DNA of 42,011 nucleotides from NCBI GenBank assembly GCA_020630975.1, contig JAHDID010000034.1, positions 22,648 through 64,658 of the forward strand, in the 5' to 3' direction. Shown here one piece after another: positions 26,001 to 41,200 of this stretch. Made by a program: the position numbers and the translations under genes. The DNA comes from Verrucomicrobiota bacterium. Lineage in GTDB: Bacteria; Verrucomicrobiota; Verrucomicrobiia; Verrucomicrobiales; DEV007. The first letter of the stretch is position 1, and every line of letters begins with the position of its first letter. The notes beneath the pieces are model-generated. The model made no database searches. It had not been told where the DNA came from and saw nothing but the letters and a program-made list of their open reading frames with translations.

Positions 26001-26067
26001 GCTAGAGTGTAGCGGTCATCTGGCGATTGCGCTAGCGCAGGCAGCTACCAAGCCGTAGGATGTTGGC

Positions 26068-26640
26068 ATGATCGAGGGCTCCTTAACGGTAAATTCTCAG
26101 CAGCCTACTCCAGACCTAGCCTATGAAATCCATGGCGAGGTCGAGTTTCCGGAATTGCAGTTTCGGTTTAGGAAAACGCCTAAAGAAACTCGTGTCTATC
26201 AAGTCGGCCCCGATGGCGAAGAGCTGCTGATCGGAAAGACCAAGCTGAGCCGCGGAGGTCCGCTGGGGTTATATCGTAGAGAGAGGCTCGACTTCGAAGT
26301 CGGCAAACAATCGATCATGATGGAGGATCGGATTCTGTCGAAATGGATCTACTATCGCGGAAAAAAGCAGCGGCTTTTGATGAATGTCTCGTCGACTGCA
26401 CCCGAAGAACCAGCTGATCTCGATGATTCCGGCGAGGGCGATGATATAGAAGAAGAGGAGACCAATACGGCTGTAGAAATCTCTGAATGGCGAACTGTCG
26501 AGCTAGCCAATAGCCGTCTCGAGCAACACGACTACGAGACAAAGTTTCGTATCTACTCGCCCAATGAGGAGGAGGGGCTGATCATCGCATTCGTTGGATT
26601 TCACTACTGGGCAGGGCAATACCAACCATCGGACGCATAA
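26068..26640 (+). CDS. Acidic hypothetical protein
   Basis: The 190-residue product starts MIEGSLTVNSQQPTPDL, has a beta-rich first half (ELQFRFRKTPKETRVYQVG, LDFEVGKQSIMMEDRIL), a strongly acidic hinge (DDSGEGDDIEEEETN, about 130-145) and a beta-rich end (ETKFRIYSPNEEEGLIIAFVGFHYWAGQ). No signal peptide. No family is recognised. It is divergent from the CPBP protease with 67 bases between the starts, so the two may share a control region. Confidence 0.6.
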   Translation: MIEGSLTVNSQQPTPDLAYEIHGEVEFPELQFRFRKTPKETRVYQVGPDGEELLIGKTKLSRGGPLGLYRRERLDFEVGKQSIMMEDRILSKWIYYRGKKQRLLMNVSSTAPEEPADLDDSGEGDDIEEEETNTAVEISEWRTVELANSRLEQHDYETKFRIYSPNEEEGLIIAFVGFHYWAGQYQPSDA

Positions 26641-26970
26641 TTTCGATCAACTTCGGCTTTGTGGTCTCCGCGTCTTTGGGTGAAGGGCCTGAGAAGGGTG
26701 GTATAGGTGACGAAACCAATGGCTCTAGAGCATTGATGGAGGCCTCGCGCAAAGACGCAAAGACCGCAAAGCTTGGGCATTGCCCCCGATTCAATAGGGT
26801 GCAATCGGAGGAGCTGGAGGAAAGCGACGTTCTAGGTCGAGTAGTCCCAGAGGGACGAAAGAAAATAGCCGGTGGTGCAGCGTAGCGAAACCACCAGATT
26901 TCTAGTGTCTCATCAGGCAAGTCCCGGCAAGGACCACAGAAGGTGCCCGTAGAACTTTTTGGAGAACCGA
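26641..26970. repeat. Intergenic cluster of palindromic (REP-like) repeats
   Basis: This 330-base convergent gap holds no credible gene but several imperfect palindromes. CTTTGTGGTCTCCGCGTCTTTG from 26657 is the degenerate inverse of the stretch 26743-26771 (CGCAAAGACGCAAAGACCGC). CCGATT/AATCGG flank a CAATAGGGTGC box at about 26789. GTCCC/GGGAC occurs near 26844. GGTGGT/ACCACC frames GCAGCGTAGCGA near 26872-26893. Segments of this style are known as dispersed extragenic repeats in PVC and Bacteroidota genomes. No Y1 (RAYT) transposase is in the window. Confidence 0.6.
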
Positions 26971-27762
26971 TTACTCGAAAGACTCCATCGGTGGTGCGCC
27001 CATGGTGGAGTAGCCATTGTCGACGTGGATGACCTCGCCGGTGACACCGCTGGACAGATCGCTGAGCAGGTAGACGGAGCTACCACCGACATCTTGACCT
27101 ACGATGTTGCGTTTCATTGGCGCGACCTTGGCGGTGTAGTCGATCATCTTGTCGATATCGCCGACCACGGATGCAGCTAGGGTCTTTTGAGGGCCGGCCG
27201 AGATGGCATTCACACGGATATTTTCTCCACCCAGATCGTGTGCCAGGTAGCGGACCGATGCCTCGAGCGCGGCTTTGGCTACGCCCATCACATTGTAGTG
27301 GGGGATGACCTTTTCGGCACCTAGGTAACTGAGCGTGACGATGGAGCCGCCGTCGGGCATGAGCTTGGCAGCCTCCCGAGCCATCGGCACCAGGCTGTAG
27401 GCGCTCACATCCAGAGCCAGAGCAAAGCCCTCTCGAGAGGTATCGACGAAGCGCCCCTCAAGGTCGGCAGAATTAGCAAACGCTATGCTGTGCACAAAGA
27501 AATCGATATCGCCAAAGCCCTCTTTAATCGCCTGAAATCCGTCGACGATCGACTCATCGCTCTGCGCATCCATGGGGCAGGTGAAAGAGACGCCCTCTTT
27601 CTCGGCGATCTTGGTGATACGGCGCTCCACGGCCTTGCCGGGCAGATGGGCCAACCCTACCTCGGCCCCCTGTGCCTGGAGGCTCTTCATGATATGGTAG
27701 GCAAACGAGTACTCATTCACGAGCCCCGTCACGATTCCCTTCTTTCCTTCTAGCAGCGACAT
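26971..27762 (-). CDS. fabI: Enoyl-ACP reductase (NADH), FabI type
   Basis: FabI performs the last reductive step of each fatty-acid elongation cycle, using NADH. The 263-residue product has the FabI-specific glycine-rich start GKKGIVTGLVNEYSFAY, and HSIAFANSADLEG. The active-site residues fall at the same numbers as in E. coli: Tyr146 (SYLGAEKVIPHYNVMG), Tyr156 and Lys163. An Ala sits where E. coli has Gly93 in HSIGF, a position where substitutions are known to lower triclosan sensitivity; whether that applies here is untested. It lies alone between repeat DNA and the MGH1-like gene. Confidence 0.96.
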   Translation of the reverse strand: MSLLEGKKGIVTGLVNEYSFAYHIMKSLQAQGAEVGLAHLPGKAVERRITKIAEKEGVSFTCPMDAQSDESIVDGFQAIKEGFGDIDFFVHSIAFANSADLEGRFVDTSREGFALALDVSAYSLVPMAREAAKLMPDGGSIVTLSYLGAEKVIPHYNVMGVAKAALEASVRYLAHDLGGENIRVNAISAGPQKTLAASVVGDIDKMIDYTAKVAPMKRNIVGQDVGGSSVYLLSDLSSGVTGEVIHVDNGYSTMGAPPMESFE

Positions 27763-27831
27763 CCTGCCACTTATTGTGTGGGAGCCGCTTTTTCAAGGGA
27801 TTTTCTCGCTCGCGGGGCGCTAGCCAGCTCG

Positions 27832-29997
27832 CTATAGCTGGCCTGTGATGCGGCTCAGAGTAGGAGAATGAGCGATCCTATCGCCATCACAATAGAGTGT
27901 CAGCCCGGCACCTCGGCCATACCTCTCCCCCGTGCGATCCCAGACGATGGTCAGCTGGCGGCCGTGGTAGTGGACATCGTCTAGGCAGAAGTAGTCCCAG
28001 GTATCGGTGGGTAATAGTGGATTTACCACCACCTGGTCGCCTGCCTGCGGACGCAGCCCGACTAGGCCGGTGATGATCAGGTCATTGTAGGTAGAGTGGT
28101 TGTAGTCTTTGCCTCGGTGTTTGCCACCCTTGCGTTTTTCCAGCTCGGGATCGGTCTCGGCCCAATCGTGCAGTCGGGTGCGGGCGATCCAGTCGCCCGT
28201 GTGGGGGTGGATATTTTCATCGATCCATGGCACCACGGTGCCGTCCTCTCGAGTGAGCTGATGCGAGCGGGTGTAGCACTGCAGGGTCTGGTAGTAGGCA
28301 TCTCGATCGATCACGTCTTGCTCGTAGTTGTTCAGCAGATTGGCCAGAGCCGTCAGTACACTACAGGTCGCTAGCGGCCAGCTAGGGCCATTCCACTGGC
28401 ACTCGTGGCCCTCATACGATAGACGAAACGCGGGGTGACGCTGCTCGGCGAAGGTCGGGCCGTATGGGGCGTAAAAGCCCTCGGGATCCATGAGCTGGTT
28501 CCAGCCTGCCTCGTAGCCAGGGTCGGGTAGATTGAAATACCACGGGGTGTAGCCATATAGCTCGCGCACATCTTTGAGCGGCTCATCCGGCTTTGCGGGT
28601 TGGGATTTCAGATCGGGTGCCGGTAGTATCTTAAAAAATTCCGCCTCAGGGTCCCAGAGTTTTTCCTGAATCAGTTTTTTCAGGGTAGCGGCTTTATCAT
28701 TGTAGGTAGCAGCTAGCTCACTATCGCCAGCCATATCGGCGATCGCTGCGATCGCCCGTGCATCGCCATACATGAAGCTATTCAAAGTAGGGCGAAAGCC
28801 ATGCTTGCCGATCGATGCCTCGCCACCGTCGCGATCGTCGATGGTATAGAAAAGCCCACTCTCTCTCTGCCCGATATCGTTTCTCCCCCGCCACGACCAG
28901 CCCTTCTCCCAGGCCTGATAGTTGCCAACTAGATCGGGGAGTAGATCGATGAGCAGCTCGGGATCGGGAGTCACGAGGTCTCGCTGGTAATAGGCATCGG
29001 CTATCCAAAAGCTGTAGCTACGCGGGCTGCCGCCTTTGCGTAGCCAAAAGATCGCATAGTCATCCATATACTGTGGATCGTGCAGCCAGCGGCCCTCGTA
29101 GAAGTGATGCGCCGCCGGGCAGCTGATGGTGTTGTGTTTGCCCGCCCAGCCGACCTTCGGCAGAAACTCGGTGATCACATAGCCATCAGGCGTGTCCTTC
29201 ACATGCTTGCGATAGGTCCACCAGCGGAAGTAATAGGTGCGCTGCATGTCTTCATCCGGACACTCAAAGAGCGGGATATTTTGTTTCAGAAAGTCGTAGG
29301 CCTCGCTATTCGGTATATTGGCGAAAAGCTCCTCATCCTCGGCATTGAACCGATCGACATAAGTCTTGAGATTGTCATAGCTCAGGACCATCGGCTCGGT
29401 GTCGAGCGGCTCTTTCGACTGATGAGCAGTGCGCAGCCCGGTGATCGATAGATCGGTAAAGTCCACAGTCGTATCGTCTGGGGTATTGCCATTGCGAATC
29501 ACCACCGAGGTGAAGCTGAAGTCTCCCCTCAATACCATCGACTCTGCAGCACCGGTCATCGTGATGGTGGCGACATCTGGTTGGTCGGTGTGATAGTCGA
29601 TAGCGATCAGAAAGCGGCGCGGCTCGTCGACCACCACAGGGATATCCCCTGGCATCGAGATGTCCTGATTTTTCTGTCCATCAAAGACAGTCCAGACCGT
29701 AGGCCCCCAGCCATTACCAATCGCTAGTACTGGCCTCGCCCCTCTGCCTAGCTGTAGAAAGGAAAAGGATGGGTTATTCGAGAATTTCCTAAAACACAAA
29801 GTCGCAGAAATTTCGACCCTGCCTAAAAATTGATCGGAAGGTCCCTCTATCGCCTCCCAATCAAACACCGTCATTTCGCCACCGCCGGAGATGCCGCTTC
29901 GATTCAGGATATCTGGATGATCGGCGGCCTGAATGGCTGATGAGGTCAGACTTAGGCAGGTAAACGCCACCAGAAGTGGAGTAGTGTGAGATATCAT
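27832..29997 (-). CDS. Secreted MGH1/GH63-like (alpha/alpha)6 glycoside hydrolase
   Basis: The 721-residue product has a signal peptide (about 1-24) and an N-terminal beta-sandwich of about 200 residues (FDWEAIEGPSDQFLGRVEIS, FLIAIDYHTDQPDVATITMTG). A helical barrel follows from about 230, with MQRTYYFRWWTYRKHV, EFLPKVGWAGKHNTISCPAAHHFYEGRWLHD, WIADAYYQRDL, TLNSFMYGDARAIAAIAD, ECQWNGPSWPLATCSVLTAL and GKDYNHSTYNDLIITGLVGL. This resembles the MGH1-like/GH63 C-terminal catalytic fold. Substrate is unknown; the setting with sulfatases suggests an extracellular polysaccharide or glycan. A degenerate repeat lies just upstream of the start codon. Confidence 0.75.
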   Translation of the reverse strand: MISHTTPLLVAFTCLSLTSSAIQAADHPDILNRSGISGGGEMTVFDWEAIEGPSDQFLGRVEISATLCFRKFSNNPSFSFLQLGRGARPVLAIGNGWGPTVWTVFDGQKNQDISMPGDIPVVVDEPRRFLIAIDYHTDQPDVATITMTGAAESMVLRGDFSFTSVVIRNGNTPDDTTVDFTDLSITGLRTAHQSKEPLDTEPMVLSYDNLKTYVDRFNAEDEELFANIPNSEAYDFLKQNIPLFECPDEDMQRTYYFRWWTYRKHVKDTPDGYVITEFLPKVGWAGKHNTISCPAAHHFYEGRWLHDPQYMDDYAIFWLRKGGSPRSYSFWIADAYYQRDLVTPDPELLIDLLPDLVGNYQAWEKGWSWRGRNDIGQRESGLFYTIDDRDGGEASIGKHGFRPTLNSFMYGDARAIAAIADMAGDSELAATYNDKAATLKKLIQEKLWDPEAEFFKILPAPDLKSQPAKPDEPLKDVRELYGYTPWYFNLPDPGYEAGWNQLMDPEGFYAPYGPTFAEQRHPAFRLSYEGHECQWNGPSWPLATCSVLTALANLLNNYEQDVIDRDAYYQTLQCYTRSHQLTREDGTVVPWIDENIHPHTGDWIARTRLHDWAETDPELEKRKGGKHRGKDYNHSTYNDLIITGLVGLRPQAGDQVVVNPLLPTDTWDYFCLDDVHYHGRQLTIVWDRTGERYGRGAGLTLYCDGDRIAHSPTLSRITGQL

Positions 29998-30015
29998 GGG
30001 TTGGCTATTTCGGAC

Positions 30016-30042
30016 TCAAGGATGGGCTGCCTTCAGCTGCCC
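30016..30042 (+). repeat. Degenerate copy of the TCAAGGAGGGGCTGCC repeat
   Basis: The first 27 bases match arm one of the long inverted repeat at 38127 with two mismatches, then diverge. It lies 19 bases upstream of the MGH1-like start codon. It is a half copy with no partner arm nearby. Confidence 0.6.
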
Positions 30043-30191
30043 TGCTTGGCAGAGATCTATTGACCAATTACAGTTCGCCATCAAGCATCCACATATTCGA
30101 CTTTAATATGCAAATTATGCAAATTAATACACTCGAGGTCTCCTGTGATTGAGTTCCTTATTCCATTGTCGGGTCTAAAACTAACGTCGAA

Positions 30192-30199
30192 TAGAATAA
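30192..30199 (+). repeat. Left target-site duplication of the insertion sequence
   Basis: TAGAATAA abuts the left inverted repeat and is repeated exactly at 31263-31270 after the right one. Eight bases is the length expected for the IS1595 family. Confidence 0.9.
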
Positions 30200-31262
30200 T
30201 CTGGCTATGCACTTGGGTTCAACGATTACAATTTAGGTGTTAATTGCCATGATTTACGTATTCAGCCCCTTCTATCAGATTATTTCTAACAGGTGAAGCT
30301 TTAATAGCACTTCCACCAACCGCTGGAAAAGCAGCCCGCGATGTTTTGAATATCGGCGGTTAAACCGAAAAGTGAACTCGTCTAAATAATACCCGAGATG
30401 AGACTTCGCAATCGCTTCTTGGTGAGTGCCTAGGAGCCATCTCTTCATGAGGGAAACGGTCAGATTTACCAGGGGCAATAGATTCTCCCCTGTCTCAACG
30501 GTTTTGGGACCAACTGTTTCGATAGTTTGGTAGGAACGCCAACAGTCACTTCGAATGGTTGCCCCAGGCTCAATCGCTTGACTAATCGCTGCGAAAAGTG
30601 TTTCGCGGCTGGCATTTTAAATCTGGATCAGTCGAACTCTGCCTGGCTTTCCGTCATGGTCTTCGACCGCGACAAAAATCAGAACCTTTCCAGCGGCACC
30701 GCGCCCACGTTTGCCGGTCTTTACCCCACCATAAAAGGCTTCGTCGACTTCAACAGTTCCCATTAAACGGTCCCGGTCAGAGTTTACCATCGCCGATCTC
30801 AGCTTGTGAAGCCAGGTCCAGGCCGTGTGATAACTGCCCAATCCTAGAGCTCTTTGAAGCCCTAATGCACTCACTCCATTTTTCTGGTTGGTCACATAAC
30901 CACATCGCTCTAAACCAAAACAATAATGGCTTGCGAGTCTGATGAAATATCGTGCCTGAAGTCAGTGATGTTCGGAAACTACATTCCTGACATATGATAA
31001 GCAAATCTGCCGTTTCCCAAACCTTTGCACGCCCACATTTTGAACACATGAGTCCATTAGACCACCGCAATGTCTTGAGGTAGTCACGACAATCGACAAT
31101 CAGACTCGACACGGAATTGAGATTCAAAATCTGCCATCTTTGAAGGCAATTGAGGGCGTATTTCCATCCGCGAAAGACGAAAATCACTTCACTTATATGC
31201 ATAGACTCACTCCCTTTGTGTGCATAGACTTTGTAACGGGTGAACCCAAGTGCATAGCCAGA
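30200..31262 (-). mobile_element. IS1595-family insertion sequence (inactivated)
   Basis: The element is 1063 bp. Perfect 22-base terminal inverted repeats lie at 30200-30221 (TCTGGCTATGCACTTGGGTT plus CA) and 31241-31262, flanked on both sides by the 8-base target duplication TAGAATAA. The encoded DDE protein has IS1595/ISXO2-like features. Intact ends with a mutated transposase show one clean insertion followed by decay in place, although the ends could still be moved in trans. It inserted just after the stop codon of the TIR gene, leaving that gene whole. Confidence 0.93.
30275..31202 (-). pseudogene. Broken IS1595-type (ISXO2-like DDE) transposase
   Basis: Pieces of one transposase lie in order. 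The N-terminal part (start near 31202) has the zinc-ribbon CSKCG...CQEC and the FRTSLTSGTIFHQTRKPLLFWFRAMW block. The centre has GVSALGLQRALGLGSYHTAWTWLHKLR and the DDE core opening GTVEVDEAFYGGVKTGKRGRG. The end has LGTHQEAIAKSHLGYYLDEFTFRFNRRYSKHRGLLF. A frameshift near 30895-30900 moves from the first frame to the second. An in-frame TAA at 30617-30619 (after VRLIQI) interrupts the second, after which the same frame stays open to 30275. Restored, the protein would be about 309 residues, normal for the family. Two independent lesions make activity very unlikely. Confidence 0.92.
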
Positions 31263-31270
31263 TAGAATAA
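31263..31270 (+). repeat. Right target-site duplication of the insertion sequence
   Basis: TAGAATAA, identical to 30192-30199. It lies two bases from the TIR gene stop codon. Confidence 0.9.
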
Positions 31271-31272
31271 AT

Positions 31273-31722
31273 TCACAATGGATCACTATGTTTATCGCGG
31301 TTAGCCAATTCGTTTAAAATTATATCTGCAGCGTCACCATTTCCAAACAGTCGAAAAAAATCTTCATCCATTCCTAACATCCGTTCCACTAAACTTATAC
31401 CCTGAAATTCTTTCAAAAAGCTGGGGAATTCGGTGTTATCAAGCTGAACTGGAACGATATCGATCTGATTCTCACATGCTAATTCACACTCATATCTCAC
31501 CCAATCGGATTCCCTTGCATTTCCAGACCAAAAAACTATAACCCGGCTTGAACTCAGTAGAGCTTTCTCTAACTCTGGTCGCCATTTCTTTCCTTTTGGG
31601 ATGCTGTCCGAATCGCGAAAAACAAATGCATAAGATGCCCGCATGAGTTCGACTAATGGAATGATAAGCGCCTCATCTTTACGTGAGTAAGATACAAATA
31701 CTTTCTTTTTTATAATATTCAT
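31273..31722 (-). CDS. TIR-domain protein
   Basis: The 149-residue product is essentially a single TIR domain. It opens KKKVFVSYSRKDEALIIPLVELM (box 1), then FRDSDSIPKGKKWRPELEKALLSS, VIVFWSGNARESDWVRYECELA and DIVPVQLDNTEFPSFLKEFQGI. Glu78 in SDWVRYE sits where catalytic Glu lies in NAD-cleaving TIR enzymes (S/N-x-W-C-x-x-E pattern). Bacterial TIR proteins act in NAD depletion, signal-nucleotide synthesis or adaptor roles, often in antiphage defence. The ATG at 31722 is favoured over one 24 bases upstream. It is divergent from the HExxH peptidase gene, with about 120 AT-rich bases between them. The downstream insertion sequence begins 10 bases after the stop. Confidence 0.88.
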   Translation of the reverse strand: MNIIKKKVFVSYSRKDEALIIPLVELMRASYAFVFRDSDSIPKGKKWRPELEKALLSSSRVIVFWSGNARESDWVRYECELACENQIDIVPVQLDNTEFPSFLKEFQGISLVERMLGMDEDFFRLFGNGDAADIILNELANRDKHSDPL

Positions 31723-31774
31723 AGCTACAAATTCCAGGTGAAGCAAAAAATGATATAGCCCAAGTAAATTAAAT

Positions 31775-31805
31775 TTGCTCTTGATTGTTATACTCGCATT
31801 ATAAT
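31775..31805 (+). promoter_or_regulatory. Candidate promoter for the zinc-peptidase gene
   Basis: The AT-rich divergent gap contains a perfect TATAAT at 31800-31805, with TTGCTC at 31775-31780 separated by 19 bases. This would start transcription a few tens of bases before the leader ATG at 31843. The spacing is long and the -35 weak, so this is tentative. Confidence 0.35.
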
Positions 31806-31842
31806 AAATTTATCAAGACTAAGTTTTTAGTGGGATACAAAC

Positions 31843-31866
31843 ATGAACCACTCTGATCGACCATGA
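31843..31866 (+). CDS. Seven-codon leader ORF overlapping the peptidase start
   Basis: ATG at 31843 gives MNHSDRP and stops with TGA inside an ATGA overlap, whose ATG (31863) begins the zinc-peptidase ORF. GTGGGA lies a few bases before the leader start, while nothing comparable precedes the second ATG except coding sequence. This arrangement could make peptidase translation depend on translating the leader. It may equally be chance. Confidence 0.3.
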   Translation: MNHSDRP

Positions 31867-33035
31867 CGCCGACTTTTGAAGCACCCCAATCAGAAATGGA
31901 TTCTCTTTCTGATACTGAAAAGAACTTTAATGAGTTTTTCTCTAGAAAACAAGGAGGGATTCATTACAGCGGGCTCTACCTCCCTTCGAGCTTTGACCAA
32001 GATGACGGGCCCTATGCCCTGAGGTGCAGAGAAGCAATCAACAGTTTCTGTGCTAATTTTTTGGATCGACAAGAGTTTAAGAAACCTTTTTCAGTTCATA
32101 CGAATTTTGTTAACCACCATATTGTGAACGCTTACGCGGCTTATGATCGCGCAAATTGCAGTCACTATATTGGCATCACTGCTGGCGCATACCTTAAGTT
32201 AGATTTGGTTTTTAGTGTTATTCTAGCCTGCGTACCTGTATGCGAACGAATTGCACCGTTGAAGAGTCCGATTACCCCTAGAGGATTATTGCATAATATA
32301 AATTCACTGGACTTGATAGAAAGTTCCAACTTGATGATCTATCCTGTCGAGCCCGAACGGCAGCTTCTGTCGATTATTTGTAGTAAGCTAGCCCTTGAGT
32401 ATATGGTGCTTCACGAAATAGGCCACCTCGCAAATGGTCACGCCAACCGTTTGTGTTCTACAACAGGTCTAGATTGCGCTCTGGGAGAAAATGGAGGTAT
32501 CCATGATTCGGAACTCAGCCCTGATGAACGCATTGCAATGGAAATATTCGCAGATCAGTCAGCAACAGATTGGCATTTGTGGGGGCATGATAACAAGTGC
32601 ACCCCAATTTTTTTTAATGAATGTCCATATCCATATCAGCCAGATTTTGACGCAGAAGGTTTTCTATATCTATACTCTTTTGTTACTGGGGTGGTGCTTC
32701 ACTTATTTAAGGGTTCGGGTGAGTGTTTGAATTTCCTCAGTGATCACGGTATTTCATACCCTCACCCTGAAGTTAGGTTTAATACTATGTATTCAACAAT
32801 AATCAATGCGACAGGTGTTGATGGAAGGGATATGAATGATGAAAAAACGGAAGCGATAGCCCGGGGTATTGCTGACTGTGTTTCTGCAGTATCAGTTATT
32901 TTGGGAGGGAAGCCGTTCGCGAATTGTTTTTCACCGACTAACAAAGGGCATGACGTGCTTGAGGTTCAGAAAAAAGTTTATCGAAAATCATCAGAGTATT
33001 TATCCGTCTGGAAGGATTATAGTTATTTTAGGTAA
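31863..33035 (+). CDS. Soluble HExxH zinc metallopeptidase-like protein
   Basis: The 390-residue protein has LEYMVLHEIGHLANGHANRL, giving the zinc motif His184-Glu185-x2-His188. A downstream EIFADQSA has Glu227 and Asp231 in the E-x3-D spacing seen in M48-type and related gluzincins. It has no signal peptide or membrane helix, so it acts in the cytosol, unlike most M48 proteases. The N-terminal 180 residues (NFVNHHIVNAYAAYDRANCSHYIGITAGAYLKLDLVFSVILACVP) are of unknown fold. Composition is AT-rich like the TIR gene. The pair shares a divergent control region and may form a defence or abortive-infection module, which is inference. Confidence 0.75.
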   Translation: MTPTFEAPQSEMDSLSDTEKNFNEFFSRKQGGIHYSGLYLPSSFDQDDGPYALRCREAINSFCANFLDRQEFKKPFSVHTNFVNHHIVNAYAAYDRANCSHYIGITAGAYLKLDLVFSVILACVPVCERIAPLKSPITPRGLLHNINSLDLIESSNLMIYPVEPERQLLSIICSKLALEYMVLHEIGHLANGHANRLCSTTGLDCALGENGGIHDSELSPDERIAMEIFADQSATDWHLWGHDNKCTPIFFNECPYPYQPDFDAEGFLYLYSFVTGVVLHLFKGSGECLNFLSDHGISYPHPEVRFNTMYSTIINATGVDGRDMNDEKTEAIARGIADCVSAVSVILGGKPFANCFSPTNKGHDVLEVQKKVYRKSSEYLSVWKDYSYFR

Positions 33036-33095
33036 ATGAGAATAAGGGACAGGTGGTGCTGGCTTATGATGTAGAATATTATTGCAAAAGCACCA

Positions 33096-33492
33096 TCAAT
33101 GCTTCGATTGTGAGAGAAATTTTCGGCAGCTCCCGCGATCCCTATCAGGCCTTCCTTTCGCACCGAAGTTAGGCGGGCAGGTTATTTTGACGACCTTTTC
33201 CTGAGTCTCATCATAGTACACCACATGCTCATTGCCCATTGCCCTCTCCTAGTTCCTCAAAGTGATGAAGGAAGTCCTCTAGTTGTCTGCTAGAATAGAG
33301 GCATTGGTGCGTGGTTGCCCAGTGTAGTAAGGATTTTTTCTCACGATCGAGCTGTTCTCCAAGATCTGCGCAATGGCAGCACTCTCTGAGACTGGTGTAG
33401 GGTCCTTCGAGCGTCTTTCCATAATCTGCCGAGTTCTCTCCTTTAGGAGCTCCGCACTGTTCTTTTTTTATCCACCATTCAAAATTACACAT
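33096..33492 (-). pseudogene. Remnant of a kinase-like gene broken by a 7-bp tandem duplication
   Basis: A first frame (33492 to 33229) reads MCNFEWWIKKEQCGAPKGENSADYG and ends ...FEELGEGNGQ. Directly before its stop the plus strand carries ATTGCCCATTGCCC, a tandem duplication of seven bases. Removing one copy restores a frame that reads EELGEGNEHVVYYDETQ, then KVVKITCPPNFGAKGRPDRD, and stops at 33096-33098. GxEHxVxxDxxxxxVxKxTxPxxFG resembles the N-lobe start of kinases found in polyvalent phage or plasmid proteins. The rest of that domain is missing, so the gene is both frameshifted and truncated. Gene family is tentative. Confidence 0.55.
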
Positions 33493-33547
33493 TTGTGCCT
33501 AAGAAGCAAGAAAATGCTTGTCGGCCTATGGGGAGGGAGAGTGTGCA

Positions 33548-35050
33548 TTAGTAATCTTGCCCCATCAAGCTCTGCAAAACTTCACCTTGCCACGCTCGCA
33601 GCTCTTTGCTCATGCGTTCGACTAGTTCTGGGTGATGAGTTGCTAGGTTTTGCGTCTCTCCGGGATCCTCTGCCAGATCGAATAACTCCACGCCTGAATG
33701 CTTCTCACCATCGATCACTAGTTTGTAGTCGCCAGCTAGCCATGCGCGTGGGCCCTGGTAGTCATTTTCGGTGATGGCGGGGTGGTGGTAGTTCACAAAG
33801 TTTCGGGTGTAGATGCCTTTCATTTGTTTGACCAGTGGCGTGGTGCCTTTCTGTAGTTCGGGATCGATGTAGGGTTTGGCATTTTGGTAGGCTTTTGCGT
33901 CTTTTTTGAAGTTCCAAAAGCCTATCGGCTCGCTGCGTTGTGCGCTTTGCCCTGAGAATATCGGTAGTAGATCCACTCCATCGAGTGGGCGCTGTGGGGT
34001 GTCAATACCAGCGAGAGAGCATACCGTGGGTAGCATGTCGCTGGTGATGGCATTGGCCGATATTGTTTTGGCCTGCGCCGCTCCGCCGGGCCATTCGATG
34101 ACTCCGGGTACGCGGATACCATTTTCATACACGTAGCCTTTCATCTTGCGTAGAGCGGACTCGCGCATACCGCTGGGTGGGGTGCCATTGTCACCGCAGT
34201 ACCAGAGTAGTGTGTTGTCTCTGAGTCCCAATGTTTTCAAAGCATTACGCAGCTTGCCGATGGATCGATCCATAGCGGTGATCTCTGCGTAGCGCTCGAC
34301 CAGTACATCGCGCAGTGGGCGCTTGGTCTTAGTGCCGGTTTCATTGGATGTGAGGCTGACGGTCTGGTCTGAGTAGCGCTCGGGTAGGATGTCTCGGTAT
34401 AGCGCCAGATCTGTCTCCAGGGCGCTGTATGGCTCGTGGGGCGACCCGTACCAGATCATGGTAAAGAATGGTTGGTCGGGATTCTCTCGTTGTTGTCTTT
34501 TGATGTAGTCGATGGCCTCATCGATCAGGATCTCCGAGCTCTCTCCATAGTAGGTTTTTGGTGGTCCACCATTCCGAGACATCACTGGGTTGAGCTCGAA
34601 GAAATTGTCGTGGGCAAACCACTCATCAAACCCCATCGCCCCAGGGCTGGTAGGCGAGCTAGCTTTGACCGGACCGACATGCCATTTACCGAAGTGCGCA
34701 GTACCATAACCAGCTTGCTGTAGCAGATGGGCCAGAGTGATCTCCTCTGGTCTCAGTGAGTGCCCAGGGGTGAAGGTGCCATATCGATTCGGGTGTCGCC
34801 CCGTCAAGAAACTACCGCGTGTGGGAGAGCACGTAGGATGCGCGTAGAAGCGATCGAGCCTCAGCCCTGTCTCAGCCATCTCATCGAGGAATGGTGTCTT
34901 CACGAAGGGGTGCCCATTGTAGCCTACCTCCTCCCATCCGTGATCATCGCCCATCAGTAGGATGATGTTGGGCCGAGGCGAGCTATCCTGAGACTGCAGG
35001 TAGACCCAAGGTAAAAGAAGGAAGCAGCACAGAGATAGAGTCCGAATCAT
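33548..35050 (-). CDS. Secreted type I (formylglycine) sulfatase 2
   Basis: The 500-residue product starts with a signal peptide (MIRTLSLCCFLLLPWVYLQS, with possible Cys8/Cys9 lipoprotein site unlikely). It has NIILLMGDDHGWEEVGYNGHP and the formylglycine motif CSPTR at 74-78 in AHPTCSPTRGSFLTGRHPNRYG. GTAHFGKWHVGP, TLLWYCGDNGTPPSGM and VELFDLAEDPGETQNLATHHPEL are further sulfatase hallmarks. It lies upstream of no other sulfatase on its strand but is followed by the accessory island. It is distinct in sequence from the sulfatase at 19776, so the two likely differ in substrate. Confidence 0.95.
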   Translation of the reverse strand: MIRTLSLCCFLLLPWVYLQSQDSSPRPNIILLMGDDHGWEEVGYNGHPFVKTPFLDEMAETGLRLDRFYAHPTCSPTRGSFLTGRHPNRYGTFTPGHSLRPEEITLAHLLQQAGYGTAHFGKWHVGPVKASSPTSPGAMGFDEWFAHDNFFELNPVMSRNGGPPKTYYGESSEILIDEAIDYIKRQQRENPDQPFFTMIWYGSPHEPYSALETDLALYRDILPERYSDQTVSLTSNETGTKTKRPLRDVLVERYAEITAMDRSIGKLRNALKTLGLRDNTLLWYCGDNGTPPSGMRESALRKMKGYVYENGIRVPGVIEWPGGAAQAKTISANAITSDMLPTVCSLAGIDTPQRPLDGVDLLPIFSGQSAQRSEPIGFWNFKKDAKAYQNAKPYIDPELQKGTTPLVKQMKGIYTRNFVNYHHPAITENDYQGPRAWLAGDYKLVIDGEKHSGVELFDLAEDPGETQNLATHHPELVERMSKELRAWQGEVLQSLMGQDY

Positions 35051-35132
35051 TTCGGTCTACCGTCATGCGTATCGAATGATTTTTCGAGAAGCGAACGCAA
35101 CGTGATCACGCGGCACGTACGGCAGCGCGATT

Positions 35133-35927
35133 TTACTCCACTGGTTCGACGGTGTTTTCTTCATTTGCCATGCCGCCAGGTAGCTCCATGAGGCGGATCT
35201 TCCGATAATGTATCTCCGCACCCTCCGACTCTAGGCACAGGTAGCCTTTGCGAAAGCCGGACTCGCGGATGCTGTTTACGAATTTACCATTCACCGATAG
35301 TTTCACCGTGCCATCGACAGCGACTACGACATATCGATTCCACTGGCCTTTGGGCAGGCAGCGGTGCTCCAGTGATTTGCTGCGACTTCCTCGTGGATTG
35401 TCAGGGATTGCTTTCATACCTCCTGCCCCGAATAACTCACCGTGAACATAGGCCAGCGGCAGTGGCTTGCCATTGCGTGCGTGGATAAAAGGGTACTCCA
35501 GTTCCAGCATTTGTACTTCCATCCCTTTTGGGAGTCGATTGCCCTCTGGGCGGGCGTCGCTCCACAGGAAGATGCCTGAGTTGCCACCGGCCTCCATGTG
35601 GCGCCATTCGATGATCAGGATGAAGTTTTCATACATCCGATCCGAGCGCATCACTCCGATCGGCTTGCCTTTGCACACCAAGTGTCCCTTTTCATTTACC
35701 GACCAGGTGTCTTCGGAGGTATTCACATCGATCCACCCGCTTAGGTCTTTGCCATTGAATAGATCGACAAAGGCAGGATCGGGCCGCGTTTCTTCGAAGC
35801 TCGGTATCGGTACGGTAGGCAGAGCATTTTGCGGGTACTCAGGCGTTTCGCCCTGTTGAGCTTTTAAGGAGCTGGCTCCCCAGATCAAGCAGTAGAATAA
35901 AGCTAGGGTCAGAAACGCATTTTTCAT
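35133..35927 (-). CDS. Secreted DUF1080 (3-keto-disaccharide hydrolase-like) protein
   Basis: The 264-residue product has a signal peptide ([23 protein letters not shown]) and a DUF1080 domain. Its hallmarks are [76 protein letters not shown] and [23 protein letters not shown]. Characterised members hydrolyse 3-keto-disaccharides or 3-keto-glucosides, often working with FAD or GFO/IDH oxidoreductases that make the keto sugar. The flavoenzyme cluster upstream on the same strand makes such a pairing plausible but unproven. It is followed by the second sulfatase gene 82 bases downstream. Confidence 0.9.
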
Positions 35928-35966
35928 CGGCGGTATCATAACCAGAGGAAACCACCGAGCACAACC

Positions 35967-37091
35967 TCACAATCGGTCAGAGTGTTTCTCCCGAAATGCT
36001 TGCAACTTTAGCTTTGCCGAGTCGGATAGGGTTTGTTTCGACAAGTAGTCGTAGGCTCGACGCGCGATGAAAAAGTCTTTCGATTGCAGCAGTTTCATTA
36101 CATTGGATTCCACTGTGTCGGAAAAGGCATCGCGGCTTTCGATCAAACGTAGGGCGAGATGGATCGGGTAATAGTCTTGCTGATCCAGATGCGATGTCAG
36201 CTCCTCAAGGATGGTTTCGTCCAATTGATCATCGGCCTCGAGCAGCTCGATGATTAGTGAGGCACTGTATTCCTCTAGATTGGGCAGAGTGCTGATGAGT
36301 TTTCGGTATCCGCTAGTTTTGTCGGGGCTGGCTTGCTGGAGGTACGCGATGGCTAGCTCGACATGGTCGATATCAGCGCTGGGTAGTAGCTGTGCAACTC
36401 GGTCGAGGTAGGTAGCGGGGACAGGCATTTGTTTGAGCAGGTAGTCGAGAGCGAACTTGATCTTCCGCCAGTCTTTGGAGGCTAGTAGGTGCTCGAGGTA
36501 GGCTGGGGAGCATTCAGACTCTGTGGTCGACTGCAGGATGGAGACGATCTCGGTATTGGCGTACTTCCATAGGACCCAGGTCGTCCAGGCAGCATCCTTG
36601 ACGACCGCTTCTTTTACCGCTCCTGGCGTGGCTTTGGTAGTGCCATCGATTGAGTCAGCATTATATGATGTGGGTTCGTCGTCTGTATCAGTCGCTAGAA
36701 ATCCTAGCTCGTGATCTCTCAGTATCGATTTTCGATCTTTTAGGATCGTGTCGAGTTTCTGATAGTCTGCCTCAGTAAATGGCTCGTGCTCCACTTTAGT
36801 CAAAGGCTGCCCTTCCGGATAGGTCAGACGCTGGTAGTATCCCATCGCATCCCAATACAGAGTCACCTCTACGAGTTTACAAACATCGTCGAGGCAGACT
36901 TTGTTGGTAAGATACATGCTGTAGCCCGTCGGAAAGCCTAGATCATCAAAGTGACGAGTCAGACTGTGTTGTTTCTTCGGCTCCTCGGGATAGACGGGAT
37001 CTGTCAGTTCGATGGTGATTGCCTCATTAGGGCGTGCCAGCGAGAGACAGCTAAAAATGAAGCAAAGTGAAAAAATAAAAACGCGCTTCAT
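35967..37091 (-). CDS. Exported HEAT-like protein with predicted covalent FMN site
   Basis: The 374-residue product has a signal peptide (MKRVFIFSLCFIFSCLSLA). Its N-terminal half contains VCLDDVCKLVEVTLYWDAMGYYQRL, then HEPFTEADYQKLDTILKD, then IDGTTKATPGAVKEAVVKDAAWTTWVLWKYAN. The segment Asp149-G-T-T-K-A-Thr155 fits the D-x-x-S/T-x-A-T/S flavinylation motif recognised by ApbE, and the surrounding sequence resembles exported FMN-binding-type proteins of Bacteroidota and PVC bacteria. FMN would be attached to Thr155. The second half is a run of short helical repeats (HEAT-like: AYLEHLLASKDWRKIKFALDYLLKQ, ASLIIELLEADDQLDETILEELTSHL). The gene starts one base after the apbE stop, so translation is probably coupled. 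The flavin assignment is inference. Confidence 0.75.
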   Translation of the reverse strand: MKRVFIFSLCFIFSCLSLARPNEAITIELTDPVYPEEPKKQHSLTRHFDDLGFPTGYSMYLTNKVCLDDVCKLVEVTLYWDAMGYYQRLTYPEGQPLTKVEHEPFTEADYQKLDTILKDRKSILRDHELGFLATDTDDEPTSYNADSIDGTTKATPGAVKEAVVKDAAWTTWVLWKYANTEIVSILQSTTESECSPAYLEHLLASKDWRKIKFALDYLLKQMPVPATYLDRVAQLLPSADIDHVELAIAYLQQASPDKTSGYRKLISTLPNLEEYSASLIIELLEADDQLDETILEELTSHLDQQDYYPIHLALRLIESRDAFSDTVESNVMKLLQSKDFFIARRAYDYLSKQTLSDSAKLKLQAFREKHSDRL

Positions 37092-37092
37092 A

Positions 37093-38079
37093 CTAAATCA
37101 GATCAAACCCTTCTGTTGTGACTGCCTCCCCCGTTTTAGTAACAAACAGGGCGTCGACTTGATCGATTGATTCTACTAACTCTTTCGCATCCTCCAAGCC
37201 GAGTATAAGTAGCGCGGTAGAAAAAGCATCGGCCTCCAGTGCGGTGGGGGCCGCTACCGATACGCTGGCCAATTCACTGGGAGAGAGTCCAACCCTAGGA
37301 TCCAGTATATGATGATGCTGGTAGTCATCTGAGAACCGAGTCGCGTAGTCGCCGGAAGTCGAGAGGCATCGGTTTCGCAGTCCAGTCTTGGCGATGCGAC
37401 CTGACTGCCTAGGATGTTGCACGCCGATATGCCAGTGATCTTTGTCTTCGGGAGAACCTACTGCATTGAGCTCTCCCGCATCGATGAGCGCGTGCTCGAT
37501 GCCATATTGCCCGAGCGCCTGTCTGGCGAGATCCGCAGCCATGCCCTGAGCGACACCGTTTAAGGTGACCTGCATACCCGGTCGGTCGAAATAGATCAGG
37601 TCAGACTCGATGCGCAGATGCTGCCAACCCATCCGTTTCCGCACCTTCTGGATCTCCGCAGTTGTCGGTAATGCACCCGTAGCAGTACGACTGCTATAGA
37701 GTTCCCAGAGCGGTTGCACTGTTACATCAAAGGCGCCCTGTGTGAGCCGCGACAGATCCTCCGAATACCTAAGAATAGCTACTAGGTCCGGATGCGGATG
37801 GCGCAGGACACCCTTTCTGTTGAGGGTGCTCAGTTGACTATCAGGCCGATAGAGGCTCATCACTTGCTCCACCTGCTCGATCTTTTCTAGTGCTGCGGAG
37901 ATCGCTTGCTCAGCTACCTCCTGCTCAGCATGAAAAACTGTGATCGCCACCTGTGTGCCCAATGCGTGTGATTGCCTGGTGTGCCGCGATAGAGTATTGC
38001 CTCTGCCCAGAGCTTCAGCCGAGATCAAAGCGGCTGCCGTGCCGGTGCTTAGACTTAGGAATTGTCGTCGGTTTGCCAT
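37093..38079 (-). CDS. apbE: FAD:protein FMN transferase
   Basis: ApbE cuts FAD and attaches FMN to Thr or Ser of exported flavoproteins. The 328-residue product begins MANRRQFLSLSTGTAAALI, a twin-arginine export signal, so it acts outside the cytoplasm. Family blocks are ALGTQVAITVFH, AFDVTVQPLWELY, GVAQGMAADLARQAL, ALIDAGELNAVGS (the usual GGD appears as GEL), LSTSGDYATRF, HHILDPRVG and ASVSVAAPTALEADAFSTALLILG. The ATG at 38079 is chosen because the signal starts there; a longer frame would run back through the palindrome at 38127-38215. It is coupled to the predicted flavinylated protein downstream. Confidence 0.94.
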   Translation of the reverse strand: MANRRQFLSLSTGTAAALISAEALGRGNTLSRHTRQSHALGTQVAITVFHAEQEVAEQAISAALEKIEQVEQVMSLYRPDSQLSTLNRKGVLRHPHPDLVAILRYSEDLSRLTQGAFDVTVQPLWELYSSRTATGALPTTAEIQKVRKRMGWQHLRIESDLIYFDRPGMQVTLNGVAQGMAADLARQALGQYGIEHALIDAGELNAVGSPEDKDHWHIGVQHPRQSGRIAKTGLRNRCLSTSGDYATRFSDDYQHHHILDPRVGLSPSELASVSVAAPTALEADAFSTALLILGLEDAKELVESIDQVDALFVTKTGEAVTTEGFDLI

Positions 38080-38126
38080 TTGGTTGTTCGTGGTCTTGGT
38101 TTCACTGGCACAGCCATTTTCCAGGT

Positions 38127-38215
38127 TCAAGGAGGGGCTGCCTTTAGCTGCCCGGCAGGCTGAGCCATATCCTTCGGCAGGGGTTGCCGGGCAGCTAAAG
38201 GCAGCCCCTCCTTGA
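38127..38215. repeat. 31-bp perfect inverted repeat (long hairpin)
   Basis: Arms 38127-38157 and 38185-38215 are perfectly complementary over 31 bases (arm one starts TCAAGGAGGGGCTGCC and ends AGCTGCCCGGCA), with a 27-base loop. It sits between the stop of the FAD oxidoreductase and the apbE start, so it could terminate or attenuate transcription or protect the upstream message. A related half copy occurs at 30016-30042, suggesting a dispersed element rather than a simple terminator. No T-tract follows on either strand. Confidence 0.85.
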
Positions 38216-38237
38216 GGAAAGAGAAAGGTATAGATAC

Positions 38238-41200
38238 TTATTTCAAAGCCCCTTTGCGCACGTCTGTCTGCCAATTGTTACTCTGTTTTTTGAAGTTTTG
38301 AAAATGCGTGTACTCCTTCTGCGTCACCTTGCCATCGCTATTGGTATCGATGAATGGGAATAACCATTCGTAGCCTGCTTTCTGCTTATTCCAATCAGCC
38401 TGAGTGGCCCAGCGTATGTCAGTCGGTTCTGGAACGGCAGCAGGTCTAGTTATCATAATAGTGGCGGACTCGCTGATTGCTTCGCTGCCGTCTGGCCCTG
38501 TCACGACCACATCGAATGTGGAGTTACTGTCTTTTACCGTTAGGTCGGGCAGTCTCAGTCGAGACGTTGTCGCACCGGCGATATCTTGTCCATCGCGACG
38601 CCACTGGTAGGTGGCCTCAGGTTTTGGTGAGACCACGATTAAGCTGAGCGTTTCACCCTGTGTGATGGTTTGGCCCGCCGGCTGTACCCAGATGAGTTCA
38701 TCGCCTACTGCTGTCGAAAAGGTGGGCTGTGTGTTTAGTATATGATGAGCATAGGCTGCAAAGTGGCCATTCACATCCCTAGTGTAGTTTTCTAAGATCT
38801 CGCGCCCTAGATTCTGATGATCGCCGCATTCGTAGAGCAGGGCGGCTACCAGCACTTCTTTGAACTTAGCATTGAGATCTGGGCCTCCCTGGGCGTTTAC
38901 GCGGTGGCGCTTCGGCTCGGCCCCGCCACTAGCGGCGTAGTAGCTGAGTGGCTGCGAGTGGCCTTTTACTCCTTTTTTATTGAGTAGGTGAGCAAGTGGC
39001 TCGGCCAGTAGACTGTGTTTATTTAGTCGTAGTGCTAGACACACCGCTTTGTAGTGAGAGAGAGGGCTGCCTGCGTCTAATAGCTCTAGTTTCTGCACCA
39101 GTGCGGGTACCACTTCTGGTGTTTGCAGAAATCCCAAAGCGATGACCAGGCGATCGACTTGGCCAAAGGAATTGGCTTTTTCGCGTTGACTACTGAAATC
39201 CCAACCCTTACCCCATCCAGAGGTTTCGCTCACGGCAGTCTGTAACACTTCTTTACCCGATGCATCGCCTAACACGGCTAGGATTCGGGCGAAATTGATT
39301 TTAGTATCGATATCGTCCGTGTGTTGAAAAGCGTGTTTGAGATGGGGTATCGCTTGTGCCGCGTTACCCATCACCATGGCAAGTGCAGGTAGCGTCTCGT
39401 CGTGCTCGCGCTTTTGGTGAACGTCGATCGTCAGCGAGTGGAGTGTCTGCACGGCGGCCTGGATCGCCTCGTCATCTAGGGGGAAAGAATCGGTGTCGGT
39501 GAGCACGCGCTCTTGTAGGGTACCATTGCGCACCAGATCGCGCTGCAGTCGCTTTAGATCGATCTCGCGCACCAGTCCGCCGGTGGTCCGGACAGCTAGA
39601 GCTGCGGCCATACCGGCAGCGTAGCCCTGATTTTGTAGATCCGGCTGCATGCGAGTGAGAGTCATGGCATCGCGATGAGCGCTAGCACTCAGCCCGGTGA
39701 CCAGTAACCCCTCGAGACCCTGCGGGGTCAGGCAGCGGTAGGGCATGTCGGATACATAGACGGGGCCCTTCATATCTTTGACCAAAAACATCAGGTCGTC
39801 CGGCAGGGCACCGGCATCGAAATTACTGCGGTGATGAGAAATGGTATCTGGAAAGGTGCGACCGGTCACGATATCCCAGGTGCCGAGATTGTAGTCACCT
39901 ACGATACGCCTGCGATCTCGGGTATCGATGAGCTGGCCCATGTCGTGTGGCTCCTTGTTTTTCACTCCACCGCGCTGGCGGGCGGTCAGCAGCAGATGGG
40001 TGCGGTCGAGCACGTCGGCGTCATTGGTCATGGCGTAGGCCGTGTTATTGTGGCGCACGCCCAGATCTCGATCGGGGTAGCCAGCTACCTGCACGGTCAG
40101 ATCACCCGAGGCGGATATGCTGTACTGGGTAGCAGCTCCGGCAGCAGCCGGTATATCGGCATTGCCTGTGCCATCTACCACCACATCGGCTAGCACTACG
40201 CCTCGGCCAAAGGGAGTTGCCACGACCACTCCGCAGACTTTCTGATCTTTCATCACGGCTCCGCAGCCAAAGCTACCAAACCACACCTCGGCATTTGCCT
40301 TCATCAGCTCAGTGCGCAGCCACTCGGCTTTTTTGATCGGCCACCATTGGTTGTCTATATTTAGAGCTTTGTTCATCTCGCTGGTGAAGCCGGCGTTCAG
40401 GCCATACCAATAGTTGGTCACCAGACCTGCGGTGCCGACTCCGCCGAGTTCATCCATGTACTCGATCAAAAGCGTTCTAGCACCCGACCGAGAGGCTCCT
40501 ATCGCTGCCGGTGCGCCCGAAGTGCCGCCCCCGACGACTACCACATCCCAGCGGCCAAGCACCGGCAGATCGTGAGCGGGTAGCTCGACCTGAGGGCAAT
40601 CGCGAAATCGAAAGCTCGAGGCGACTTCCGAGATGGTGGCATCTTGTTTTCCTGAAGGCGACGTGGGAAATCGAAGTCCCTCAGGTGTCGCCAGTTTTGC
40701 GGCGCTCTCGGCGGCTTCAGTGCCGATGCGCTGTCCGGCTGCAGCCAAGTGAGTGATATTTTGAAATCTGGCCTGTCGATCAGATTCGCTACCTCCCGCA
40801 TAGGCGCTCAAGACATAGAGATTGGCAACGCCTTTGGGGCAAAATTCATTCGTCTCGGCAGGTATGATTGGATTGTCGGGAAAGTAGAGTGGTCGCTCGG
40901 AGTGATCGACCATCGCCGAATCATAGATGATCGATCTCATGCGATTGAGATCCTGACTGCGTGACCGGAAGGTGTCGGCCTGATTGGCGATCGACAGGGT
41001 GTACTCATAGAGCGGAAACTCGCGCCCACCTTTGGCCTCTGAGATAAAGTGGATGTCAGGCACTTTGAGCGGGGCTGCATCGCCAGTCGGCTCGCCACCG
41101 ACTACGATGAATTTAGCCTCTTTCTCACCCGGCTCGAAGGGGCGAAACTCCGCCTGGCTCTGGCGTGCCAGCGTGGCATCTGGCGTGGCATCGATCACGA

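What the first reader, a model, noticed from the sequence alone, without database searches (positions are those of the whole stretch)
31273..33035. Divergent TIR and cytosolic HExxH peptidase pair in an accessory island
Seen: a single-domain TIR protein with Glu in the catalytic spot is divergent from a soluble zinc peptidase-like protein (H184-E-x2-H188, E227-x3-D231), both AT-rich, flanked by an IS and a gene remnant. Known: TIR proteins in such islands often serve antiphage defence, and proteases are activated by or partner with signalling domains in several systems. Inference: a two-gene defence module in which one protein senses or cleaves and the other degrades NAD or makes a signal. No ThsA/ThsB or other known TIR partner is present.
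Basis: partly seen in the sequence, partly recalled or inferred. Interest (0 to 1): 0.65.

Follow-up and report, generated by a model that had tools for sequence, protein, structure and literature searches.

The report
TIR gene beside Lit-like zinc protease
A bacterial genome carries a small immune-type TIR enzyme gene next to a gene for a rare zinc protease distantly like the phage-exclusion protease Lit; two more TIR and zinc-protease neighbours were seen elsewhere in the same genome, hinting at, but not proving, a two-part antiviral device.

Summary
Window 31273-31722(-) encodes an intact single-domain TIR protein with Glu78 in the usual catalytic place. Window 31863-33035(+) encodes an intact 390-aa zinc-peptidase-like protein (HEIGH 184-188, E227, D231). 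Both are AT-rich, and a broken IS1595 element ends about 10 bp past the TIR stop. The peptidase fits no accepted family; it and the only two relatives found all point weakly to the phage-exclusion protease Lit. Neither relative has a TIR nearby (one whole genome has no TIR_2 hit), 0 of 11 loci with TIR relatives have the peptidase signature, and 4 Lit-like loci elsewhere have no TIR: this divergent pair is not conserved as far as I could search. Yet around the 24 other TIR hits of the same genome, two loci have a zinc-peptidase-like gene directly beside a TIR gene, in one with stop and start 1 bp apart. That exceeds a rough chance estimate, but is post hoc and from one genome. Most likely: accessory antiviral cargo, a TIR NAD+-cleaving enzyme and a Lit-like protease; functional coupling is possible, unproven.

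The parts
31273..31722 (-). single-domain TIR gene, 149 aa from ATG (ORF opens at TTG 31746)
   Evidence: Pfam TIR_2 8.5e-18; translation
31489..31491 (-). codon of Glu78 (DWVRYE), the usual catalytic position of NAD-cleaving TIR domains
   Evidence: read from sequence; role recalled, not tested
31863..33035 (+). Lit-like zinc-peptidase (gluzincin) gene, 390 aa, no signal peptide seen by eye
32412..32426 (+). H184-E-I-G-H188 zinc motif, followed by G192-H193
32541..32555 (+). E227-I-F-A-D231, expected third zinc ligand and conserved Asp
   Evidence: aligned with ExxAD of Lit-like proteins; in the alignment E222 was placed there instead of E227
32757..32777 (+). Y299-P-H-P-E-V-R305, aligned with HPxxxxR of Lit (P300 and R305 kept, His replaced by Tyr)
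31723..31862 (.). AT-rich intergenic region between the divergent genes; holds most of a 7-codon reading frame (31843-31866) whose stop overlaps the peptidase ATG
   Evidence: no promoter-like match listed here
30199..31263 (.). IS1595-family element with 33-bp inverted repeats, transposase broken

Best explanation
An accessory, probably antiviral, locus carrying two effector-type enzymes. The TIR protein is expected to cleave NAD+ when triggered (inferred from its family and the Glu in the usual place). The 390-aa protein is a zinc protease of the Lit-like/M48-like gluzincin kind, probably cytosolic, expected to cut a host or phage protein when an infection cue appears, as Lit cuts EF-Tu (inferred by resemblance). 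Shown here: both genes intact, foreign composition, catalytic residues present, weak but repeated similarity of the peptidase to Lit-like proteins, and TIR/zinc-peptidase adjacency at two more loci of this genome. Not shown: enzymatic activity, defence, or that the two proteins act together. Because adjacency recurs in the genome but this pair was not found elsewhere, I judge 'two effectors brought together in an island, possibly coupled' the likeliest reading.
For: TIR_2 match with Glu78. The window peptidase, L047 and L048 each have Lit as best NCBIfam hit (0.012, 0.024, 1.6e-5). BLASTP of the window peptidase with the Lit-like L006: 6e-4, and of L047 with L007: 2e-5 (single-comparison E-values). 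hhalign with a profile of Lit and 3 Lit-like proteins: E 1.9e-5, probability 78, over 27 columns. HExxH, ExxAD and P...R aligned. Low GC and IS edge. Two further TIR/zinc-peptidase adjacencies in the same genome.
Against: All Lit matches are far below family cut-offs and centre on the zinc motif; direct BLASTP with E. coli Lit found only a meaningless stretch (E 0.24). No structure could be obtained (pLDDT 31). The seven flanking genes tested are metabolic or unknown, none a PADLOC defence family. No conserved pairing found in other genomes.
Confidence: 0.5

Rival explanations
1. [quoted passage not shown]
For: TIR-to-protease signalling exists (passages of PMC12847820 on type IV Thoeris). In the same genome a Lit/M48-like peptidase stop and a TIR start lie 1 bp apart (L116), and a peptidase-like gene lies 36 bp before a TIR-SLOG gene (L119). 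The TIR scores best at NCBIfam against the TIR part of ThcB4 (4e-12, below cut-off).
Against: The window genes are divergent, not an operon. No second, ligand-binding domain was recognised in the peptidase. No conserved pairing found elsewhere; the genome that holds L048 has no TIR_2 hit at all.
Confidence: 0.2
2. Chance neighbours: two unrelated accessory genes brought in separately next to an IS, with no shared role.
For: No conservation of the pair found; divergent orientation; the genome is rich in TIR genes (25 hits, 24 over cut-off), so accessory genes often land near one. With every motif-bearing ORF counted, 2 in 188 kb of TIR surroundings against 3 in 659 kb of background is not significant (P 0.31).
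Against: Direct adjacency at two further loci: rough chance of 2 or more is 0.028 under a simple Poisson model. Of ORFs without a hydrophobic window, 2 against 0 (P 0.049), but the window peptidase itself would fail that filter.
Confidence: 0.25
3. The peptidase is a regulator, like ImmA/IrrE or CapP proteases, that cleaves a repressor and so turns on the TIR gene.
For: Divergent genes sharing a regulatory region; the peptidase of the L116 pair matches PADLOC capP at 1.3e-6 and Pfam M78 at 3e-4, the latter below cut-off.
Against: No repressor gene was seen beside the window pair; the window peptidase itself has no capP or M78 match.
Confidence: 0.05

Closest known systems
Lit, phage exclusion protease of E. 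coli e14 (Peptidase U49, PF10463 / NF007238)
   Same: HExxH, downstream ExxAD, P and R of the HPxxxxR motif aligned, probably cytosolic
   Different: 390 aa against 297; 14% identity in the alignment; longer insert between GH and ExxAD; Tyr in place of the motif His; NCBIfam score 14.8 against a cut-off of 274
Type IV Thoeris (TIR plus caspase-like protease)
   Same: a TIR gene next to a protease gene
   Different: zinc protease, not caspase-like; divergent genes rather than one operon; no signal shown
Thoeris ThsB / type III ThcB4 TIR proteins; Cat1 (CRISPR-associated TIR) among solved structures
   Same: TIR domain similarity: ThsB_TIR 5e-7 (30.5 bits, above that Pfam cut-off of 21.2), ThcB4 4e-12; Cat1 2.3e-4
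   Different: single domain; ThcB4 score 45.6 against cut-off 220; no Thoeris partner seen
Zincin-like metallopeptidase of VMAP/FtsH ternary conflict systems (PMC7159879, passages seen)
   Same: a metallopeptidase gene associated with TIR-bearing proteins: in the FxSxx type a TIR/AP-ATPase gene lies downstream of the peptidase and its peptide
   Different: there the peptidase processes a small peptide and vWA, VMAP and AP-ATPase components are present; none was recognised in this window
Peptidase family M48
   Same: HExxH and ExxAD
   Different: Pfam score 11.1 against cut-off 20.3; one hydrophobic stretch only

Membership tests
TIR domain (PF13676) | score above Pfam gathering cut-off | tested here: met
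   65.4 bits, cut-off 28
TIR domain (PF13676) | Glu at the catalytic position | tested here: met
   DWVRYE, residue 78; position recalled from the literature; the predicted TIR structure was too poor to check it
TIR domain (PF13676) | NAD+ cleavage | not testable with these tools
   needs an assay
Lit / Peptidase U49 | score above family cut-off | tested here: not met
   NF007238 14.8 bits against 274; PF10463 not listed at E up to 1
Lit / Peptidase U49 | HExxH plus ExxAD zinc site | tested here: met
   alignment
Lit / Peptidase U49 | HPxxxxR motif | tested here: inconclusive
   P300 and R305 align, His is Tyr
Lit / Peptidase U49 | cleavage of EF-Tu | not testable with these tools
   needs an assay
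Peptidase M48 | score above Pfam cut-off | tested here: not met
   11.1 bits against 20.3
Thoeris | ThsA-type effector (SIR2, TM-macro or caspase-like) beside the TIR gene | tested here: not met
   the peptidase and the seven large flanking genes of 24366-38274 show no such domain; smaller ORFs not tested
Conserved two-gene TIR plus peptidase module | same pair in other genomes | tested here: not met
   0 of 2 peptidase relatives with a TIR nearby, 0 of 11 TIR-relative loci with the peptidase signature; small sample, four of the eleven pieces under 11.2 kb

The most novel reading that the evidence does not exclude
A TIR-controlled immune pathway whose effector is a Lit-like zinc protease: the TIR senses infection and makes an NAD-derived signal, and a gluzincin is the switched-on protein cutter. 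This genome would carry three diverged versions (window pair, the 1-bp-spaced L116 pair, the L119 TIR-SLOG pair).
Probability: 0.18. Interest if true: 0.75.

Novelty: new variant of a known kind. Interest (0 to 1): 0.42.

Why it matters
If real, Lit-like zinc proteases would join caspase-like proteases as effectors of bacterial TIR signalling, and the old Lit story (a protease that stops phage T4 by cutting EF-Tu) would connect to TIR immunity. Even without coupling, the peptidase adds a rare, diverged branch near Lit, and the L116 pair is a clean, testable TIR/protease gene pair.

Tried and rejected
Single-sequence searches for the peptidase gave nothing in viral contigs, plasmids, phages or genome contigs, only itself in 288 genomes of the phylum, and, besides itself, two hits that I did not believe in 56 relatives: G000:C79 (E 0.009), which lies on the strand opposite a long ORF, and G199 (E 0.09). 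PDB sequences gave no credible match. A looser core search of 387 genomes gave 79 genomes with hits at E up to 2; I looked at 29 of the loci made, not at the rows without a locus. Six had an HExxH near the match: four look like membrane M48-type proteins by eye and two like chance. A motif-based alignment found nothing among 316 stretches of viral contigs and two relatives in genome contigs. L047 gave nothing in plasmids, phages or viral contigs. L054 (E 0.0017) was not examined further and L092 (E 4.3e-4) was judged chance from its ORF list. The L116 and L119 peptidases gave nothing in plasmids, and nothing in viral contigs or phages respectively; the L116 TIR gave one weak plasmid hit. For the window TIR, viral contigs gave none, phages one weak hit. 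Structure predictions failed: peptidase pLDDT 31; TIR pLDDT 54 with no PDB fold match at E 0.001 or better. Promoter scan, Rfam and PHROGs were uninformative. Flank synteny: the sulfatase next door has matches in 21 of the 32 other same-genus genomes; 10 of those 21 were fetched (4.6-16 kb, some ending near the sulfatase) and none shows the TIR, the peptidase or the gene on the other side, so no empty site could be defined.

Full report
What is there. The window lies in contig C16 of a 7.14-Mb draft genome of 158 contigs. The TIR gene, 31273-31722 on the minus strand, encodes 149 residues and matches Pfam TIR_2 at 8.5e-18 and ThsB_TIR at 5e-7, both above cut-off. Its Glu78 sits in DWVRYE, where NAD-cleaving TIR domains carry their catalytic Glu (recalled, not tested). 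The divergent gene, 31863-33035 on the plus strand, encodes 390 residues with H184-E-I-G-H188, G192-H193, E227 and D231. Both reading frames are intact. Their GC is 0.391 and 0.420, while six other window genes have 0.533-0.580. An IS1595-family element with 33-bp inverted repeats, broken transposase reading frames and an 8-bp direct repeat at its ends lies 9 bases past the TIR stop. The stop codon does not come from the element. The seven large flanking genes of 24366-38274 are metabolic (reductase, glycoside hydrolase, sulfatase, 3-keto-disaccharide hydrolase, ApbE), an Rce1-like protein or unknown, with no PADLOC match, so the pair does not sit among recognised defence genes.

What the peptidase is. 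It has no accepted family. Its best NCBIfam match is Lit at E 0.012, far below cut-off, and Pfam M48 is weaker still. A search of genome contigs with a conserved-motif pattern gave 230 stretches, 2 of them relatives: L047 from a Rhodocyclaceae MAG (about 460 aa; BLASTP 27% over 158 columns, 1e-7) and L048 from a Methylobacterium (280 aa, possible signal peptide and a type I restriction locus by eye; 26% over 149 columns, 1e-7). Each also has Lit as its best NCBIfam match (0.024 and 1.6e-5). PF10463 gave Lit-like proteins in 4 of 288 genomes of the phylum, 3 of them over cut-off. In an alignment with three of these four and E. coli Lit, the window protein shares the zinc site, the downstream ExxAD, and P300 and R305 of the HPxxxxR motif, with Tyr for the His. 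BLASTP against L006 gives 6e-4, against L007 0.007, L004 0.03 and Lit itself 0.24. I call it Lit-like by resemblance; it fails the membership cut-offs. One hydrophobic stretch at about residue 109 leaves a membrane contact open. Lit is a latent protease that cuts EF-Tu when the T4 Gol region is translated (passages of PMC3014915). Beyond these the family was not found: no credible match among the loci looked at from 387 genomes of the phylum, 349 genomes of the L047 phylum (one hit at E 0.0017, not examined) and 150 of its family (one hit at 4.3e-4 judged chance).

Is the pair conserved? No sign of it. L047 and L048 have no TIR in the 15-16 kb held; the L047 genome has 10 TIR_2 hits, none on the L047 contig, and the L048 genome has none at E 0.001 or better. 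Eleven loci holding TIR relatives (one Methylomagnum plasmid locus, one in the same genome, nine in other genomes; 3.8-16 kb) have no ORF with HExxH and a following ExxxD; four of them have an HExxH alone. The plasmid TIR, 45% identical over 102 residues, sits with two GTPase genes, an NB-ARC-like and a TPR gene (the NB-ARC label is my reading). Four Lit-like loci in other genomes, 17.5-18 kb each, have no TIR.

Does the theme recur in this genome? The genome has 25 TIR_2 hits, 24 over cut-off, on 24 ORFs. I read 188 kb around the 24 hits outside the window (overlaps counted once). Two loci have a zinc-peptidase-like ORF directly beside TIR genes. In L116 (contig C12) a 346-aa peptidase (HELGHHMLGH, EEFEAD; Pfam M48 6.6e-5, above cut-off; PADLOC capP 1.3e-6; best NCBIfam Lit 0.015) lies between a TIR-WD40-FGE gene and a TIR gene on the same strand; its stop and the first ATG of the TIR frame are 1 bp apart. 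It resembles Lit-like L006 (1.6e-4) but not the window peptidase directly (0.18). In L119 (contig C31) a 612-aa protein (LLSHEVGH, MREIVAD; no family, so a peptidase by motif only) lies 36 bp before a TIR-SLOG gene and is divergent from a second TIR-SLOG gene. In 659 kb of background (36 pieces, contig starts and spaced pieces of long contigs, chosen away from TIR hits; no TIR found in them) 3 ORFs have the motif: two with many membrane windows and one on the strand opposite a longer ORF. Counting all motif ORFs, enrichment is not significant (P 0.31). Counting only ORFs without a hydrophobic window it is 2 against 0 (P 0.049), though the window peptidase itself would not pass that filter. A Poisson estimate of direct adjacency, with an assumed 0.85 genes per kb, gives 0.26 expected and 0.028 for two or more; with a guess of one soluble ORF per 659 kb it gives 0.0035. 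The motif test, the filter and the density are my choices made after seeing the data, and accessory genes cluster, so this is a hint.

Reading. The likeliest account is antiviral accessory cargo: a TIR NAD+ enzyme beside a Lit-like zinc protease. Coupling is attractive because type IV Thoeris TIRs switch on a caspase-like protease (passages of PMC12847820 citing Rousset et al. 2025) and because of L116, but the window pair is divergent and was not found elsewhere. Metallopeptidases near TIR proteins are not wholly new: PMC7159879 (passages) describes metallopeptidase domains as rare effectors of vWA-MoxR systems, and a zincin-like peptide-processing peptidase with a TIR/AP-ATPase gene downstream. 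Eight paper searches were run (two returned no paper, 111 nothing relevant). In their listings, seen as titles and abstract starts, and in passages of three papers I saw no described pair of a TIR with a Lit-like zinc protease. The full texts were not read and most subscription papers are not in that library.

Noticed in passing
L116:6056-12453 (G000:C12): Same-strand array of a double-TIR gene, a TIR-WD40-FGE gene, a Lit/M48-like peptidase and a TIR gene, the last two 1 bp apart.
   Followed up: partly
L119:11507-18130 (G000:C31): A 612-aa HEVGH/ExxAD protein of no known family between two divergent TIR-SLOG (LD_cluster2) genes.
   Followed up: partly
whole genome G000: 25 TIR_2 domain hits in one 7.1-Mb genome (24 over cut-off).
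   Followed up: partly
L056:3601-11741: Methylomagnum plasmid: closest TIR relative found, with a glycine/alanine-rich hydrophobic C-terminal part, beside two GTPase genes, an NB-ARC-like and a TPR gene.
   Followed up: no
window 31843-31866: Seven-codon reading frame whose stop overlaps the peptidase start codon; possible leader or chance.
   Followed up: no
L047:9041-9445: Small protein gene with hydrophobic stretches (by eye) overlapping the end of the L047 peptidase gene.
   Followed up: no
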